Under the pieces are notes generated by a model. That model ran no database searches. It was not told the DNA's origin and saw nothing but the letters and a program-made list of their open reading frames with translations. 64,000 nucleotides of DNA from Pseudomonadota bacterium (GTDB lineage: Bacteria > Pseudomonadota > Gammaproteobacteria > Xanthomonadales > Ahniellaceae): positions 86,691-150,690 of the forward strand of contig JALHNO010000005.1 of NCBI GenBank assembly GCA_022843465.1. Direction: 5' to 3'. Below, piece by piece: positions 16,656 to 21,826 of this stretch (positions are counted from its first letter, which is position 1; each line of letters opens with the position of its first letter). The position numbers and the translations under genes are program-made.

Positions 16656-17150
16656 TTACTCGGTTTCGGCTTCTTCAGCCGCGGCCGGTGCTGGCTCCGG
16701 TTTGCAGAAAGCGGCGATCTGGCGTTCGGCCGTGGCGATCTCGGCCTGGTGCTGGTCGAGATCCAGTTCCTCGGGCTCACCGTCGCCATCGGTGTCCTTG
16801 AGTACGGTCTGATTGCTGTTGAGCACTTCAAGATTCTTTTTCGCGGCCTCGCAGTTGGCCGACTCCGGCGTCTCGGCTCCGGGCTTGGTTTTCGGCTTGG
16901 CCGCGCCCTCCTCGCCTTCTTCGGACTCGTCGCCGCTGCGGCCGGCCTGGGTGCGTACCTTGAGCTTGTCAGCTGGCTGGCCCTTCGGCGGCTGTGCGCT
17001 GTAGTGCCAGACGCCCTGCTCATCCTGCCACTTGTAGAACTGCTCGGCCAGCAGCGTCGGCGAAGCGACCAGCAAGGCAAGCAACAGGGCAGTGGCGTAG
17101 CCTGGCACCTGCCGGGCGGACTGGTTCAGGCGTCGAATCGTGCTGCGCAT
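16656..17150 (-). CDS. DUF4124-domain periplasmic protein
   Basis: A 164-residue secreted protein. A signal peptide (TALLLALLVASPTLLA) precedes a DUF4124 domain with the pattern QFYKWQDEQGVWHYSAQPP. Then comes a strongly acidic, lysine-containing linker and a C-terminal region with two cysteines (ESANCEAAKKN and AAFCKPE) that could form a disulfide in the periplasm. GAGG stands nine bases before the ATG. It is first in the unit with the shorter DUF4124 gene (17 bases apart) and proS. The pair looks like an old tandem duplication. Function is not known. Confidence 0.82.
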   Translation of the reverse strand: MRSTIRRLNQSARQVPGYATALLLALLVASPTLLAEQFYKWQDEQGVWHYSAQPPKGQPADKLKVRTQAGRSGDESEEGEEGAAKPKTKPGAETPESANCEAAKKNLEVLNSNQTVLKDTDGDGEPEELDLDQHQAEIATAERQIAAFCKPEPAPAAAEEAETE

Positions 17151-17285
17151 GGCGGAATCCTCATTCCTTGGTGGCCCGATATTAGCGCCGCGCCAGCGCA
17201 AGGGAAGCGCTGTCGGCCGCATTGTTCAGCTCGGGTCGCTTCGGCGGCGTTATACACTGGCCACCATTCAGCTGCTGGCCGACCG

Positions 17286-18080
17286 ATGAGCGAAGCGCCC
17301 GTAACCCCACCACCCCGTCATCCGGGCATCTATCTGCTGCCCAATCTGTTCACCACGGCTGCGATGCTGGCGGGCTATTTCGCGATAATTTCCGCGTTTT
17401 CCGGCCGCTATACCGAGGGTGCGATTGCGGTGTTTGTGGCTGGCCTGCTCGATGGGCTGGATGGGCGGGTGGCGCGCCTGACCAATACCCAGAGCGATTT
17501 CGGCGTGCAATACGACAGCCTTTCCGATCTGGTCAGCTTCGGCCTGGCGCCGTCGCTGGTGATGTATTCCTGGGCTCTGGCCGAGTTGAAGGTCTATGGC
17601 CCCCTGGTCGGCAAGATCGGTTGGGCGGCCGCCTTTGTCTACGCAGCCTGCGCGGCGATGCGCCTGGCGCGTTTCAACACCCAGGTGGCGGTGATCGACA
17701 AGCGCTACTTCCAGGGCCTGGCCAGCCCGGCCGCCGCTGGCCTGATGATGAGCTTTGTCTGGACCATGGAGCACCATGACATTGCGGGTGCCGATGTCGC
17801 CTTTGTCGCGCTTGGGGTGACCCTGGTCGCGGCGATCCTGATGGTCAGCCGGATCCGCTACTGGAGTTTCAAATCGATGCCTGCTTCCGATCGGGTGCCG
17901 TTCGTGGCGGCGCCGATCGCGATGGGCATCATCGTGCTGCTGGCGATTCATCCGCAGTACCTGTTGCTTACGGTGGTCGCGGTCTATGTGCTGTCCGGGC
18001 CACTGGTGACCCTGTTTGGCCTGCGCCGGCGTCGTGAGGCCAAGCAGCGTCCGCGTGAGCCCGGGGTTCCGCGGGACTGA
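17286..18080 (+). CDS. pssA: CDP-diacylglycerol-serine O-phosphatidyltransferase (phosphatidylserine synthase)
   Basis: A 264-residue integral membrane enzyme of the CDP-alcohol phosphatidyltransferase family. It makes phosphatidylserine, the precursor of phosphatidylethanolamine, from CDP-diacylglycerol and serine. The catalytic signature D-x2-DG-x2-AR-x8-G-x3-D-x3-D is complete (DGLDGRVAR ... DFGVQYDSLSD), and six to eight hydrophobic helices follow the family pattern. It is the Gram-positive-like (subclass II) PssA type, not the E. coli PLD-type enzyme. The gene lies only five bases before a GAF-PP2C phosphatase gene, so it heads an operon that continues into a partner-switch module and a lipid ABC transporter. 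This ties lipid synthesis to that system by position. Confidence 0.93.
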   Translation: MSEAPVTPPPRHPGIYLLPNLFTTAAMLAGYFAIISAFSGRYTEGAIAVFVAGLLDGLDGRVARLTNTQSDFGVQYDSLSDLVSFGLAPSLVMYSWALAELKVYGPLVGKIGWAAAFVYAACAAMRLARFNTQVAVIDKRYFQGLASPAAAGLMMSFVWTMEHHDIAGADVAFVALGVTLVAAILMVSRIRYWSFKSMPASDRVPFVAAPIAMGIIVLLAIHPQYLLLTVVAVYVLSGPLVTLFGLRRRREAKQRPREPGVPRD

Positions 18081-18085
18081 CTGAC

Positions 18086-19351
18086 ATGTCGGCCTTTCCT
18101 GCAGCCTGCGAACCGGCGCCGTCACCGACTTCAGAGCCACTGGCGCTGATCGCGGAACTGGCGCAGGCACTGGCGTCCAGTCTCGATCTGCAGGCCACGC
18201 TGAGCAAGGCGGTGCAGCGCATTGCCACGGCGATGCAGGCGGAGGCGGCGTCGGTTTTCCTGGTCGACGAGGATGCCGGTGTGCTGGTCTGTCGGGCATC
18301 GGCGGGGCCCGTCGACATCGTCGGGCTGGAGCTGCCGCTCGGGTCCGGCGTCGCCGGCCGCGCCTATGCCAGCGGCATGTGTCAGCTGGTACGTGATGTC
18401 AGCAAGGATCCCGACTTCGATGCGGCCGTTGATCTGCGTACCGGATTCACCACCCGATCCCTGTTGTGTACTCCGCTGTTTTCCGGTCATGGTGTCCTCG
18501 GTGTGCTGCAGGTGTTGAACAAGCGCGGCGGGTTGCTGTTCGACGAGTCCGATCATCTGTTGTTGCGCGCACTGGCGGCCCCGGCGGCACTGGCGATCAG
18601 CAATGCACGACTGGCCGCCGAGTCGATCGAGCAGGAGCGTTTGCACCGTGAGCTTTCGATGGCGCGCAGAATGCAGCGCAGCCTGTTGCCGCGACGCCGT
18701 CGCGGCGGTTTCCCGTTGCTGGCTCTCAATCGGCCGGCCCAGGAGATTTCGGGAGATTTCTACGACTATTTCGATCTTCCCGACGGGCGCATCGGATTCA
18801 CCATCGGAGATGTCGCCGGCAAGGGGCTGGACGCCGCGTTCCTGATGGTCCGCTGCGCCAGTCTGATGCGCTGGGCGGGCAAGGAGGGCTTGCCGCCTTC
18901 GCAATGGATGGCGCGGGTCAACGAGGAGATGTGCGAGACACTCGGCAACGGCAGCTTTGTCTGTGCGGTTGCGGGCTACTTCGATCCCCGCCGACGTGTC
19001 GTGGTCTGGGCCAATGCCGGCTTCCCGCCGCTGATCCTGTTGCGCCTGCAACAGGCCAGCGAGTCGCATCGCGCCGAGGGCCCGCCCCTGGGTATCGTGG
19101 CCGGCATGAATTTTCCGGAGCAGCAGGTCGATCTGGCGGACGATGGCGCCCTGTATCTGTTCTCGGATGGCGCCACCGACGCCCGTGACGAGGCCGGTGT
19201 CATGCTGGGTGTTGCCGGCATGCTGGCGCTGATCGAAAAGCATGCCAGCTGGCGCCCGGAAACACGACTGCGTCGCATCGTCGGCGAACTGCGCCGGATG
19301 AAACTGCAGGACGACACCACCCTGATGCTGATCGGGGGCACGGTCGCATGA
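18086..19351 (+). CDS. GAF-domain PP2C (SpoIIE/RsbU-type) serine phosphatase
   Basis: A 421-residue cytoplasmic protein. Residues about 15-180 form a GAF sensory domain (LDLQATLSKAVQRIATAM ... SRSLLCTPLF-like core). A short helical linker (ERLHRELSMARRMQRSLLP) leads to a PP2C/SpoIIE phosphatase domain from about residue 205. The metal-binding acidic residues are visible in ISGDFYDYF, GFTIGDVAGKGLDAAF, LYLFSDGATDA and KLQDDTTLM. Such enzymes dephosphorylate a STAS-domain antagonist, and both the antagonist and its kinase are the next genes. The stop overlaps the kinase start (ATGA). I infer that a small-molecule or redox signal at the GAF domain sets the phosphorylation state of the STAS protein. 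Confidence 0.93.
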   Translation: MSAFPAACEPAPSPTSEPLALIAELAQALASSLDLQATLSKAVQRIATAMQAEAASVFLVDEDAGVLVCRASAGPVDIVGLELPLGSGVAGRAYASGMCQLVRDVSKDPDFDAAVDLRTGFTTRSLLCTPLFSGHGVLGVLQVLNKRGGLLFDESDHLLLRALAAPAALAISNARLAAESIEQERLHRELSMARRMQRSLLPRRRRGGFPLLALNRPAQEISGDFYDYFDLPDGRIGFTIGDVAGKGLDAAFLMVRCASLMRWAGKEGLPPSQWMARVNEEMCETLGNGSFVCAVAGYFDPRRRVVVWANAGFPPLILLRLQQASESHRAEGPPLGIVAGMNFPEQQVDLADDGALYLFSDGATDARDEAGVMLGVAGMLALIEKHASWRPETRLRRIVGELRRMKLQDDTTLMLIGGTVA

Positions 19352-19779
19352 GTGGCAGGCCACTGCTGCGCCTCAAGATTCCGGCGCAGGCCGAGGCGCT
19401 GGCCGACATGCGCCAGCAGCTGGCGGCCGTGCTGGCGACGCTCGAACTTGCAGATCGCGAGCGCGAGCGCATCGTCCTGGCCGTGCATGAAGCCTGCAGC
19501 AATATCATTCGCCACGCCTATCGCAACTGCCCGGCAGGCTCGATCCAGCTGGACGTCAGCAAGCTGCGCGGACAGTTGCGGATCCGCCTGCGCGACCGCG
19601 CGCCGCCAGTCGATCCGAGTTGCATCCGGCCGCGCGATCTGGGTGAATGCCGTCCAGGCGGGCTCGGAATCAATATCATCGACGACACCATGGACCGCTG
19701 GCGACTGCGCCCGCTCAAGCATCGCGCCGGCAATGTGTTGTGCATGCGGCGACGGCTGCTGAAGGAAAAAAGGAAATGA
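19348..19779 (+). CDS. RsbW/SpoIIAB-like anti-sigma-type serine kinase
   Basis: A 143-residue GHKL-fold ATPase of the RsbW family. The N-box is visible as VHEACSNIIRHAYRN, the G1 box as a degenerate RDRAPPVDP and the G2 region as GGLGINIIDDTMD. Family members phosphorylate a serine on a STAS protein and otherwise bind a partner such as a sigma factor. No sigma factor gene is adjacent here; the downstream partners are the STAS protein and a lipid ABC transporter. Start and stop both overlap their neighbours by four bases (ATGA), so the three signalling genes are translationally coupled. Confidence 0.9.
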   Translation: MSGRPLLRLKIPAQAEALADMRQQLAAVLATLELADRERERIVLAVHEACSNIIRHAYRNCPAGSIQLDVSKLRGQLRIRLRDRAPPVDPSCIRPRDLGECRPGGLGINIIDDTMDRWRLRPLKHRAGNVLCMRRRLLKEKRK

Positions 19780-20123
19780 CGGCAAAACCGATCAGGAATG
19801 GATGCGAGCAACGCGTCGAGGCCGGCTGGGCAGTGCTGGATGTGTTTGGAGAAGTCGACCTCAGCTGGTCGCAGGATATTCGCCGCCGTGTACTCGATGC
19901 CCTCGCCGCCGGGCCGGCGCTTGCTGTCGTGCTGGAACGCGTCAGCTATATCGACTCGTCCGGCATCGCCGCCCTGGTCGAGGGCTTCCAGCAGGCGCGC
20001 GCGAAGACGCAGCGATTCGCCCTGGTGGCGCCCAGTGACTCGGTTCGCGCCGTGCTCGAACTGGCACGCCTCGACCGGGTGTTTCCGATCTATACCGATC
20101 TCGCAGCCGCGCTGGCGGATTGA
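19776..20123 (+). CDS. STAS-domain protein (anti-anti-sigma / MlaB-like)
   Basis: A 115-residue single STAS domain. The phosphorylatable loop YIDSSGIAALVEG (D60-S61-S62-G63) is intact and looks like that of SpoIIAA/RsbV. The same fold is used by MlaB, the cytoplasmic STAS subunit that binds the MlaF ATPase of the phospholipid transporter. Here the gene stands exactly between an RsbW-like kinase (overlapping) and an MlaE permease gene (four bases away). It could be a conventional antagonist, the MlaB subunit of the transporter, or both, which would make transport phosphorylation-dependent. The sequence alone does not decide between these. Confidence 0.9.
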   Translation: MTAKPIRNGCEQRVEAGWAVLDVFGEVDLSWSQDIRRRVLDALAAGPALAVVLERVSYIDSSGIAALVEGFQQARAKTQRFALVAPSDSVRAVLELARLDRVFPIYTDLAAALAD

Positions 20124-20127
20124 GTCC

Positions 20128-20925
20128 GTGTCCCTGGCACTGCAACTGGTCTGGCGCCTGGGCAAACGCAGTGTCGATGGCGTGCGCGGGCTCGGCTATG
20201 CCGGCGCCCTGCTGGTCGAGAGTCTCTGGTTCAGCGTCGCCGGATTTCGCAGCGGGCAGACGGTTCGCTTCGCCGCAGTGGCCGAGCAGATGCGCCAGGT
20301 GGGTGTTGATGCGGTGCCGATCGTGGCGCTGCTCAGCTTTACCGTCGGCTTGATGCTCGGTATCCAGTTCGTTGCCGCGCTCGGCGATTTTGGCGCGGAA
20401 TCGCAGGTGCTGATGGCGGTGGCAAAATCGGTAACGCGTGAATTCGGTGTGCTGATCACCGGCATCCTGATTGCCGGACGCTCGGGTTCGTCCTTCGCGG
20501 CCCGGATCGGATCGATGAGTGTCTCGCAGGAAGTCGACGCCCTCGGGGTGATGGGTATTGATCCGGTGCGTTATCTTGCGGCGCCCGCGCTGCTTGCCAT
20601 GCTGGTGATGTTGCCGGTCTTGACCATCCTCGCCAATGTGATGGCGATACTCGGCGCGGCGCTCTATTGTGCACCGGTGCTCGACATCAGTCCCACGGTC
20701 TACATCGTGCAGACGCTCAACCTGCTCGAACCGGGTGATATCTGGCAGGGGCTTTCCAAGAGTGTGGTCTTTGCCGTGCTGATCACCCTGGTCGGCGTCA
20801 GCACCGGTTTTGGCGTCAGCGGCGGTGCCGAGGGGGTCGGCCGCGCCACCACGCGCGCCGTGGTGTATTCGATTTCAGCGATCATCGTCGCCGACATGAT
20901 CTTCAGTTTTTTCCTGAATCGCTGA
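20128..20925 (+). CDS. MlaE-family lipid ABC transporter permease
   Basis: A 265-residue inner-membrane permease of the MlaE family, which moves phospholipids or other lipids between the inner membrane and an MCE-protein channel. About five hydrophobic helices and the conserved cytoplasmic loop with E-V-D-A-L-G-V (SQEVDALGVMGIDPVRYL) are present, as is the family's GAESQVLMAVAKSVTREFGVLI region. The start is a GTG four bases after the STAS stop; no independent ribosome-binding site is seen, so it is probably coupled. The ATPase gene follows after one base. No MCE (MlaD) gene or auxiliary lipoprotein is found downstream in this window, so the complex must borrow one from elsewhere or act differently. 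Confidence 0.92.
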   Translation: MSLALQLVWRLGKRSVDGVRGLGYAGALLVESLWFSVAGFRSGQTVRFAAVAEQMRQVGVDAVPIVALLSFTVGLMLGIQFVAALGDFGAESQVLMAVAKSVTREFGVLITGILIAGRSGSSFAARIGSMSVSQEVDALGVMGIDPVRYLAAPALLAMLVMLPVLTILANVMAILGAALYCAPVLDISPTVYIVQTLNLLEPGDIWQGLSKSVVFAVLITLVGVSTGFGVSGGAEGVGRATTRAVVYSISAIIVADMIFSFFLNR

Positions 20926-20926
20926 C

Positions 20927-21727
20927 ATGAGCGCAGCCGAGCCCGTCATCGAGGTCCGTCAGCTGGATGCCTTTTACGGGCGAAGGCGCATCCTGCACGG
21001 CGTCGATTTCCAGGTAATGCCGGGCGAGATCCGGGTGATCATGGGGGCCTCGGGTTCCGGCAAGAGCACCTTGCTGCGTCACCTGATCGGATTGCAGCGA
21101 CCGCATGCGGGCTCCGTCCGCATACTCGGCACCGACGTCGCCAAGGCCGGCCCCGCCGAGATGCTGGCATTGCGGCGGCGTCTTGGCGTCTCGTTCCAGG
21201 GTGGTGCCCTGATCACCTCGATGAGCGTTGGCGAGAACGTCGCACTGCCACTGCGCGAACATACGCGACTGGACGAAAACACCATCCGCATCATGAGCCG
21301 GCTCAAGCTCGAGGTGGTCAATCTCGGCGGTTTCCAGGATCTGATGCCCTCGCAGCTTTCCGGTGGCATGGTCAAGCGCGCTGCGCTCGCGCGTGCCATT
21401 GTGATGGACCCGAAACTGCTGTTCTTCGACGAGCCCTCGGCCGGTCTCGATCCCGTGGTCTCGGCCGAGCTCGACGAGCTGATTCTCAAGTTGCGCGATG
21501 CCCTCCGCATGACTATCGTGGTAGTCACCCATGAGCTCGACAGCGCGCTGAAAATCGCCGACACGATTACCGTGCTGGACCAGGGCAGGATTCTCGAGAC
21601 CGGCAGCTCGGTCAGTGTGCAGGCCAGCAACAACGAGCGCATCCAGGATCTGTTTCATCGCCGGCCTCGTCCCGTCGACGTCGACGTCGACGAATACCTG
21701 CGGCGCCTGACCCAGGAAGAACTCTGA
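20927..21727 (+). CDS. MlaF-family ABC transporter ATP-binding protein
   Basis: A 266-residue ATPase of the MlaF type that energises the adjacent permease. Walker A is GASGSGKST (40-48), the signature is QLSGGMVKRAALARA, Walker B is LLFFDEPSAGLDP, and the switch histidine is in VVVTHELDS. All are intact, so it should hydrolyse ATP. The C-terminal extension RPVDVDVDEYLRRLTQEEL contains VDVDVD, encoded by three tandem GTCGAC hexamers. In E. coli the C-terminal extension of MlaF makes contacts in the complex and STAS MlaB binds MlaF, which fits the STAS gene upstream. The operon ends here, at a strong bidirectional terminator. Confidence 0.94.
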   Translation: MSAAEPVIEVRQLDAFYGRRRILHGVDFQVMPGEIRVIMGASGSGKSTLLRHLIGLQRPHAGSVRILGTDVAKAGPAEMLALRRRLGVSFQGGALITSMSVGENVALPLREHTRLDENTIRIMSRLKLEVVNLGGFQDLMPSQLSGGMVKRAALARAIVMDPKLLFFDEPSAGLDPVVSAELDELILKLRDALRMTIVVVTHELDSALKIADTITVLDQGRILETGSSVSVQASNNERIQDLFHRRPRPVDVDVDEYLRRLTQEEL

Positions 21728-21795: not shown

Positions 21796-21826
21796 AAAAA
21801 CCGCCGCGGATCAGGCGGCGGTTTTT
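21796..21826. terminator. bidirectional intrinsic terminator
   Basis: The stem AAAAACCGCCG / CGGCGGTTTTT (11 bp) with a 9-base loop lies between the convergent transporter ATPase gene and the FadL-like gene. A and T runs on both sides allow it to work for both strands. Confidence 0.92.

What the first reader, a model, noticed from the sequence alone, without database searches (positions are those of the whole stretch)
17286..21727. Partner-switch phospho-relay built into an Mla-like lipid transporter operon headed by PssA
Six genes are packed with overlaps or gaps of 1-5 bases: phosphatidylserine synthase, GAF-PP2C phosphatase, RsbW-like kinase, STAS protein with an intact D-S-S-G loop, MlaE permease and MlaF ATPase. 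MlaB, the STAS subunit of the known Mla complex, binds MlaF and is not known to me to be phosphorylated. Here the STAS gene is coupled on one side to a kinase/phosphatase pair and on the other to the transporter, and there is no sigma factor and no MCE (MlaD) gene. A testable reading is that a GAF signal controls lipid transport by STAS phosphorylation, in step with phospholipid synthesis. Seen: order, overlaps, motifs. Known: RsbU/W/V chemistry and MlaB-MlaF binding. Inferred: their connection.
Basis: partly seen in the sequence, partly recalled or inferred. Interest (0 to 1): 0.75.

Follow-up and report, generated by a model that had tools for sequence, protein, structure and literature searches.

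The report
Phospho-switch wired to lipid transporter operon
A bacterial on/off protein switch best known for controlling gene-reading factors appears here to be built into the genes of a pump that moves membrane lipids between the two cell membranes, and the same arrangement recurs in many related bacteria, which makes an open question about how such pumps are controlled directly testable.

Summary
The six-gene string is real: PssA, GAF-PP2C phosphatase, RsbW-type kinase, STAS, MlaE, MlaF (steps -4 to +5 bases). In 61 relatives, strong hits for the kinase and for a specific MCE gene fall in the same 29 genomes; in 200 genomes of the order: 44 both, 1 kinase only, 3 MCE only (probably assembly gaps), 152 neither. 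The 'missing' MCE gene lies on another contig with a PqiC-like lipoprotein; in 14 of 22 relatives' loci that block follows MlaF. In one family the phosphatase-kinase gene and the STAS-MlaE-MlaF-MCE operon are separate, yet that STAS is the only free one found in 9 of 9 genomes searched. In 54 class loci outside the order (29 families) the kinase gene precedes the STAS gene in 53 and transporter genes follow in 49; seven are Mla operons with MlaA/MlaC. Checked active-site residues and the acceptor serine are conserved. Best reading: the STAS is an MlaB-like subunit whose Ser61 phosphorylation, set by kinase versus sensor phosphatase, switches an intermembrane lipid transporter. MlaB phosphorylation has been proposed in print without a kinase. 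No biochemistry was done.

The parts
17286..18080 (+). pssA-like CDP-alcohol phosphatidyltransferase (phosphatidylserine synthase)
   Evidence: PF01066 4.6e-19; TIGR00473 105.6 bits, cut-off 107
18086..19351 (+). GAF-PP2C (SpoIIE/RsbU-type) phosphatase, the presumed signal input
   Evidence: PF07228 4e-44 and GAF_2 4e-18; D224, D242, D361, D409, D410 kept in 151 of 151 aligned rows
19348..19779 (+). RsbW/SpoIIAB-type GHKL serine kinase
   Evidence: PF13581 6e-27; E48, N52, D83 kept in 160 of 160 aligned rows
19776..20123 (+). free-standing STAS protein (RsbV-type fold), presumed MlaB-like subunit; candidate phospho-acceptor Ser61
   Evidence: PF01740 2.6e-16; DSSG in 163 of 163 rows, 80 of them from a scan that used this motif; model pLDDT 88.7, best ten matches Z 16.9-18.1, all anti-anti-sigma-type STAS, P. 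aeruginosa MlaB Z 12.8
20128..20925 (+). MlaE-type permease (GTG start)
   Evidence: PF02405 1.9e-69; TIGR00056 212.3 bits, cut-off 212.2
20927..21727 (+). MlaF-type ABC ATPase with a C-terminal extension (Y257-x3-L261)
   Evidence: ABC_tran 7.7e-30; solved relatives include P. aeruginosa MlaF 2e-52 and E. coli MlaF 1.5e-50; tail motif in 129 of 139 MlaF from the loci read
21800..21819 (.). terminator-like hairpin, both strands, between this string and the convergent OMPP1/FadL gene
   Evidence: consensus scan; 5 terminator-like sites found in the region against 3.3 expected by chance, so only suggestive

Best explanation
The string encodes a partner-switch module whose output is an intermembrane lipid ABC transporter. 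The STAS protein is the MlaB-like subunit that must bind MlaF for an active MlaE-MlaF complex. The RsbW-type kinase phosphorylates STAS Ser61, which aligns with E. coli MlaB Thr52 in the middle of the MlaB-MlaF contact, and so detaches or inactivates MlaF: transporter off. The GAF-PP2C phosphatase, when its signal is right, removes the phosphate: transporter on. The kinase and MlaF probably compete for the same face of the STAS. The MCE protein and PqiC-like lipoprotein that complete the route to the outer membrane are the block on contig C9, which follows MlaF in many relatives. Shown here: genes, order, conservation, co-occurrence, kept active-site residues, predicted fold. Inferred: phosphorylation, its direction, the competition, the GAF signal, the pairing with the C9 block, the tie to phospholipid synthesis.
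For: Order level: of 28 loci from strong kinase hits in relatives, 22 have PssA-PP2C-kinase-STAS-MlaE in order, 19 of these with MlaF; the other 6 are family f8. Strong kinase hits and strong C9-type MCE hits: the same 29 of 61 genomes; 200-genome sample 44 both / 1 kinase only / 3 MCE only / 152 neither. The 3 MCE-only genomes gave no PP2C, and no pssA (two) or pssA cut at a contig end (one). Family f8: pssA with a PP2C-kinase fusion at one place, STAS-MlaE-MlaF-MCE at another in 6 of 6 read; that STAS is the only one in a frame under 140 aa in 9 of 9 genomes searched. Class survey, 54 loci outside the order: kinase within 1.2 kb upstream of STAS in 53, PP2C upstream on the same strand in 49, MlaE and/or MlaF downstream in 49, seven with MlaA and/or MlaC. 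Of six PP2C proteins scanned elsewhere, three carry GAF and three HDOD while the rest of the set stays. Residues kept. E. coli Thr52 aligns with Ser61; T52E weakens MlaF binding, T52A abolishes ATPase activity (PMC7367683, PMC5016091, passages).
Against: No phosphorylation or binding was measured. L174 has STAS-MlaE-MlaF-MCE with no kinase in the stretch. This genome has another STAS protein (frame up to 215 aa) and another RsbW-like protein. Four class loci lack a permease beside MlaF, four have MlaF on the other strand, and three order-level loci lack MlaF. By sequence and by model the STAS is nearer to anti-anti-sigma factors than to MlaB. Inter-protein covariation gave nothing above its control. 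Fisher tests ignore shared ancestry.
Confidence: 0.77

Rival explanations
1. The kinase/phosphatase/STAS trio is an ordinary regulatory partner switch acting on another target (a sigma/anti-sigma pair, a cyclase or an FHA system), and the transporter genes merely share its operon.
For: Kinase-STAS without transporter genes in four class loci, three with PP2C, and in named loci L170, L172, L173, L175; in L173 the next genes look by eye like a CHASE2 cyclase, an FHA protein and a phosphatase (the CHASE2-cyclase call itself was tested on L217 only). STAS sequence and model are nearest to anti-anti-sigma factors.
Against: In family f8 the STAS travels with MlaE-MlaF-MCE, not with its kinase. Kinase and MCE co-occur although unlinked. 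The trio is attached to two transporter types, Mpc-like and Mla with MlaA/MlaC. No sigma-factor domain among the window neighbours scanned.
Confidence: 0.13
2. The STAS is a constitutive structural MlaB; the kinase and phosphatase act on something else and the DSSG serine is kept for folding or catalysis only.
For: T52A in E. coli MlaB abolishes ATPase activity without detaching MlaF, so the residue has a role apart from phosphorylation. This genome has another STAS protein.
Against: Kinase just upstream of STAS in 53 of 54 class loci; no other free STAS found by PF01740 in 9 of 9 f8 genomes; serine at this site in all 163 rows where E. coli MlaB has threonine.
Confidence: 0.08
3. Regulation runs the other way: MlaF or lipid load frees the STAS, which then controls the kinase, so that transporter state is the signal and another process, perhaps PssA, the output.
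For: A shared STAS face would allow flow in both directions (inference). pssA stays with the phosphatase-kinase gene where the transporter genes are elsewhere (L078-L082, L084).
Against: No downstream effector was found; the phosphatases carry GAF or HDOD domains, which suggests that they are the input side.
Confidence: 0.07

Closest known systems
E. coli MlaFEDB (with MlaC, MlaA)
   Same: MlaE permease, MlaF ATPase and a STAS subunit; Ser61 aligns with MlaB Thr52; the MlaF tail Tyr-x3-Leu resembles E. coli Tyr261/Leu265.
   Different: STAS is a full RsbV-type domain (115 aa; MlaB 97 aa) far below the MlaB equivalog cut-off (20.9 vs 90 bits); kinase and phosphatase genes attached; likely MCE partner long (315 aa) with a PqiC-like lipoprotein; an MlaA gene and an MlaC-like gene belong to a separate set in this genome.
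RsbU-RsbW-RsbV / SpoIIE-SpoIIAB-SpoIIAA partner switches
   Same: PP2C phosphatase, GHKL kinase and STAS with a serine at the acceptor site, residues kept, same predicted STAS fold.
   Different: No sigma factor among the neighbours scanned; the attached output genes are a lipid ABC transporter.
Brucella Mpc (Mla-Pqi chimera; PMC12436622, passages only)
   Same: MlaE + MlaF + long MCE + PqiC-like lipoprotein, no MlaC homologue.
   Different: Mpc has its STAS domain fused to the permease, and the word stem 'phosphorylat' does not occur in that paper's main text; here the STAS is a free protein with kinase and phosphatase genes. This genome's second system on C20 (L022) is nearer to Mpc: its permease frame has a borderline STAS_2 match (29.1 bits, cut-off 29.2).
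Vibrio fischeri SypE-SypA (PMC8256260, passages only)
   Same: A kinase/phosphatase acts on a conserved serine of a free STAS protein whose target is unknown.
   Different: Output is biofilm formation; no transporter is mentioned as target in the passages read.

Membership tests
RsbU/W/V-type partner switch | PP2C phosphatase with intact metal-binding residues | tested here: met
   PF07228; Asp positions kept in 151 of 151 rows; that these bind metal is recalled
RsbU/W/V-type partner switch | GHKL serine kinase with intact N-box Glu and Asn | tested here: met
   PF13581; E48 and N52 in 160 of 160 rows; the roles of these residues are recalled
RsbU/W/V-type partner switch | STAS protein with a Ser/Thr at the phospho-acceptor site | tested here: met
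   DSSG in 163 of 163 rows; 80 of these came from a scan using the patterns YIDSSGIA and GEVDLSWS, so the rows not picked by that motif are 28 order, 54 class and 1 window, with some loci shared between sets
RsbU/W/V-type partner switch | Kinase phosphorylates STAS; phosphatase reverses it | not testable with these tools
   needs biochemistry
Sigma-factor-controlling RsbUVW system | cognate sigma factor encoded with the module | tested here: not met
   none among the scanned neighbours in the window; a distant sigma target is not excluded
Mla (MlaFEDB-C-A) | MlaE and MlaF | tested here: met
Mla (MlaFEDB-C-A) | short MlaD, MlaC and MlaA with the transporter | tested here: not met
   none beside it; the likely partner MCE is 315 aa with a PqiC-like lipoprotein; the genome's MlaF-E-D-C-A set is separate
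Mla (MlaFEDB-C-A) | MlaB equivalog | tested here: not met
   NF033618 20.9 bits, cut-off 90
Mpc-like MCE transporter | MlaE, MlaF, long MCE, PqiC-like lipoprotein | tested here: met
   in this genome the last two are on another contig and assigned by gene order in relatives
Mpc-like MCE transporter | STAS domain fused to the permease | tested here: not met
   separate gene 19776-20123

The most novel reading that the evidence does not exclude
Partner switching is a general, sensor-driven, post-translational control of intermembrane lipid transport in this bacterial class: a free RsbV-type STAS protein, alternately held by a kinase and by MlaF, gates both Mpc-like and Mla-type transporters. It would be the first partner switch known to me whose output is an ABC transporter, and would supply the missing kinase and phosphatase for the long-proposed phosphoregulation of MlaB, at least for this MlaB type.
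Probability: 0.72. Interest if true: 0.87.

Novelty: new variant of a known kind. Interest (0 to 1): 0.8.

Why it matters
Two papers proposed that MlaB could be regulated by phosphorylation at Thr52 but had no kinase and no evidence that it happens (PMC5016091, PMC7367683; passages). These operons name a candidate kinase, phosphatase and acceptor serine, in named strains such as Dokdonella fugitiva, Rudaea cellulosilytica, Chiayiivirga flava, Tahibacter soli and Aquimonas voraii (record titles). If right, cells could switch lipid flow between inner and outer membrane without new gene expression, in response to a signal read by the phosphatase, and partner switching would reach beyond transcription to a transporter.

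Tried and rejected

Inter-protein covariation (mean-field DCA on 135 STAS-kinase, 125 STAS-MlaF and 118 kinase-MlaF pairs): the control pair kinase-MlaF scored as high as the pairs of interest, so nothing is concluded.

The idea that the transporter is MCE-less: rejected. The idea that the MCE-only genomes G120, G130, G149 are true exceptions: not supported. PP2C was not found in any of the three (which had no positive control of its own); pssA was not found in two and is cut at a contig end in the third, while the controls G053 and G016 rang. Missing assembly is likelier but not proven.

The promoter scan found nothing. MlaF of G028 and G036, whose strings lack it, was not located: only the surroundings of their MCE genes were read. 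The gene after MCE in the C20 second system had no Pfam match. Fisher p-values are not corrected for relatedness; contrasts inside one genus (G176 both, G037 neither) and inside families f1, f2, f8 and f12 are the better evidence. No tree was built.

The fold list shows 50 entries and holds P. aeruginosa MlaB but not E. coli MlaB; no conclusion is drawn from that.

Literature: searches listed no paper that links RsbU/RsbW genes to Mla or MCE transporters. One search listed 15 of 131 papers and 15 of 29; the others listed all. Only open-licence PMC text is held, so other papers may differ. Papers were seen as passages only or in listings.
Full report
What is there. Six genes run head to tail on the + strand at 17286-21727 with steps of +5, -4, -4, +4 and +1 bases. 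Pfam names them CDP-alcohol phosphatidyltransferase (PssA), GAF-SpoIIE phosphatase, HATPase_c_2 kinase, STAS, MlaE and ABC ATPase. A terminator-like hairpin (21800-21819) lies between them and a convergent OMPP1/FadL gene. Other scanned neighbours are ProRS, DUF4124, SPFH and NfeD genes and one frame without a match; none is a sigma factor.

Correction: a likely MCE partner exists. The genome (5.18 Mb, 45 contigs) has three MCE and three MlaE genes. One set is MlaF-E-D-C-A (L021; MlaC by eye), with no STAS on that contig by PF01740. One is a permease frame with a borderline STAS_2 match, then MlaF and MCE (L022). The third MCE gene, on contig C9 (L020), has 315 aa, a PqiC-like lipoprotein (PF03886) and a gene that I read as RimI beside it, and no permease or ATPase nearby. 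In 14 of the 22 order-level loci with the STAS, this MCE-lipoprotein block follows MlaF (in L065 after about 1 kb). In the genomes of the other 8 it lies elsewhere. So the window transporter is most likely an Mpc-like MCE system whose operon is split in this genome.

Conservation in the order. A search with the kinase in 61 relatives (own genome included) gave 33 genomes with a match, 29 of them at 80 bits or more; the other four have 23-45 bits. The C9 MCE gave 53 genomes with a match at E 0.001; 29 have a match above 160 bits (in G001 the gene is in two pieces), and the next genome has 41 bits. The two sets of 29 are identical. In a sample of 200 genomes of the order, at least 90% complete: kinase (E 1e-10) 45, MCE (E 1e-20) 47, both 44, kinase only 1 (G052, 45 bits, 31% identity), MCE only 3, neither 152. 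The three MCE-only genomes, in 150 to 600 contigs, gave no PP2C, and no pssA or pssA cut at a contig end. G176 has both and G037 of the same genus neither, and families f1, f2, f8 and f12 each hold genomes with both and with neither, which suggests joint loss or gain more than once.

Separated modules. Thirty loci were read around kinase hits. Twenty-two have PssA-PP2C-kinase-STAS-MlaE in order, 19 of them with MlaF (L066, L069 and L076 lack it). Six, all of family f8, have only PssA and a PP2C-kinase fusion; two (L085, L086) come from weak hits and are dropped. In those six f8 genomes STAS-MlaE-MlaF-MCE is a separate operon. A PF01740 search in nine f8 genomes finds one STAS in a frame under 140 aa in each; it lies at that operon (read in six; in G065, G070 and G085 judged from its place about 1.6 kb before the MCE gene). 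The other STAS hits there lie in frames of 499-623 aa, as expected of SulP transporters. STAS domains that this model misses are not excluded.

Across the class. The one genome-contig scan kept 80 of 422 confirmed loci; 61 of the 80 hold PssA-PP2C-kinase-STAS-MlaE-MlaF in order, others being partly cut by contig ends. That scan used the patterns YIDSSGIA and GEVDLSWS, so DSSG in these 80 is partly by construction. A profile search of 370 class genomes gave 56 with a match at E 1e-22, 54 of them outside the order and in 29 families. In these 54 loci a kinase lies within 1.2 kb upstream of the STAS on the same strand in 53 (in the other the STAS is at a contig edge), PP2C upstream on the same strand in 49 and on the other strand in 2, MlaE and/or MlaF downstream in 49. 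Thirty-four have the set PP2C-kinase-STAS-MlaE-MlaF-MCE; seven more have MlaE, MlaD and MlaA and/or MlaC, with MlaF on the other strand in four. Four have kinase-STAS and no transporter gene. Some loci occur in both surveys. Of six PP2C proteins scanned, L217, L268 and L064 carry GAF and L254, L222 and L242 HDOD. pssA (150 bits) is seen in 28 of 28 order-level loci with PP2C and in none of the 54 class stretches.

Chemistry. DSSG is kept in 163 of 163 STAS rows (28 order, 80 named, 54 class, 1 window; the 165 aligned rows, with the reference and E. coli MlaB, hold 146 distinct cores), kinase Glu48, Asn52 and Asp83 in 160 of 160, and phosphatase Asp224, 242, 361, 409 and 410 in 151 of 151. By sequence the STAS family is nearest to anti-anti-sigma factors (TM1442 3.9e-18) and only weakly to E. 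coli MlaB (0.008). The modelled STAS (pLDDT 88.7) matches anti-anti-sigma-type STAS at Z 16.9-18.1 (4qtp 18.1, rmsd 1.6 over 111; RsbV of the RsbV/RsbW complex, 6m36, 16.9, rmsd 1.6 over 101) and P. aeruginosa MlaB at 12.8 (rmsd 1.9 over 96). E. coli MlaB Thr52 aligns with Ser61. That the first serine after the aspartate is the acceptor in SpoIIAA is recalled. Of 139 MlaF proteins from these loci, 129 have a C-terminal tail fitting [YH][LMA]x(1-2)R[LI][TV]; the ten misses are one cut protein and near variants. The two MlaF paralogues of this genome lack it by eye. E. coli MlaF uses Tyr261, Leu265 and Leu266 of its tail at the MlaB groove.

Mechanism. In E. coli, MlaB is needed for MlaF to stay with MlaE; T52E lowers MlaF binding; T52A leaves binding but abolishes ATPase activity (PMC7367683, PMC5016091; passages). 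Both papers raise phosphorylation of MlaB as a possibility. With a kinase and a phosphatase gene attached to the STAS gene, the likeliest scheme is kinase = off, sensor phosphatase = on. The direction, the signal and any coordination with PssA are inference.

Novelty. Seven searches of open PMC text (two of them with capped lists) showed no report of RsbU/RsbW genes tied to Mla or MCE transporters. The parts are known kinds; the wiring is a new variant, found in 56 of 370 class genomes as far as the STAS goes and with transporter genes beside it in 49 of the 54 read outside the order.

Mended after the recount: L179 was dropped from the transporter-less loci because it has MlaE at its cut end; the PP2C-less state of L170, L172 and L173 is stated; counts, criteria and capped lists are given.

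Noticed in passing
L021 4142-7616 (G000:C20): The genome's MlaF-E-D-C-A set (MlaC by eye) has no STAS gene on its contig by PF01740; whether it borrows the window STAS is open. Its MlaF lacks the Tyr-x3-Leu tail.
   Followed up: partly
L170, L172, L173, L175: Kinase-STAS (with PP2C only in L175) without transporter genes in the stretch; in L173 the next genes look like a CHASE2 cyclase, an FHA protein and a phosphatase. In L217 a CHASE2-cyclase gene (Pfam) follows the full transporter set.
   Followed up: partly
L176 6400-11024: Kinase and STAS head a set with MlaF, MlaE, MlaD, MlaA-like and MlaC-like genes; no PP2C gene was found in the stretch.
   Followed up: partly
window 16656-17222, and beside pssA in L066, L067, L069, L078, L083: A divergent gene for a small exported protein (DUF4124 in the window; look-alikes by eye in the loci) recurs next to pssA.
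   Followed up: no
L023 6983-7630 (G000:C14): Another STAS protein of this genome (frame up to 215 aa), next to a gene whose start resembles an FHA domain; a possible alternative partner of the kinase.
   Followed up: no
L025 6944-7492 (G000:C9): Another RsbW-like HATPase_c_2 protein (45 bits), with no STAS gene noticed beside it.
   Followed up: no
f8 genomes (G041, G047, G053, G059, G070, G080, G085, G090, G095): Where the kinase and the MCE gene are on one contig they lie about 55-59 kb apart, as if from one old rearrangement.
   Followed up: no
L174: STAS-MlaE-MlaF-MCE without kinase or PP2C in the stretch, as in family f8; the rest of that genome was not searched.
   Followed up: no
L173: A metagenome bin titled Klebsiella pneumoniae carries this locus; probably a mislabelled record.
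   Followed up: no
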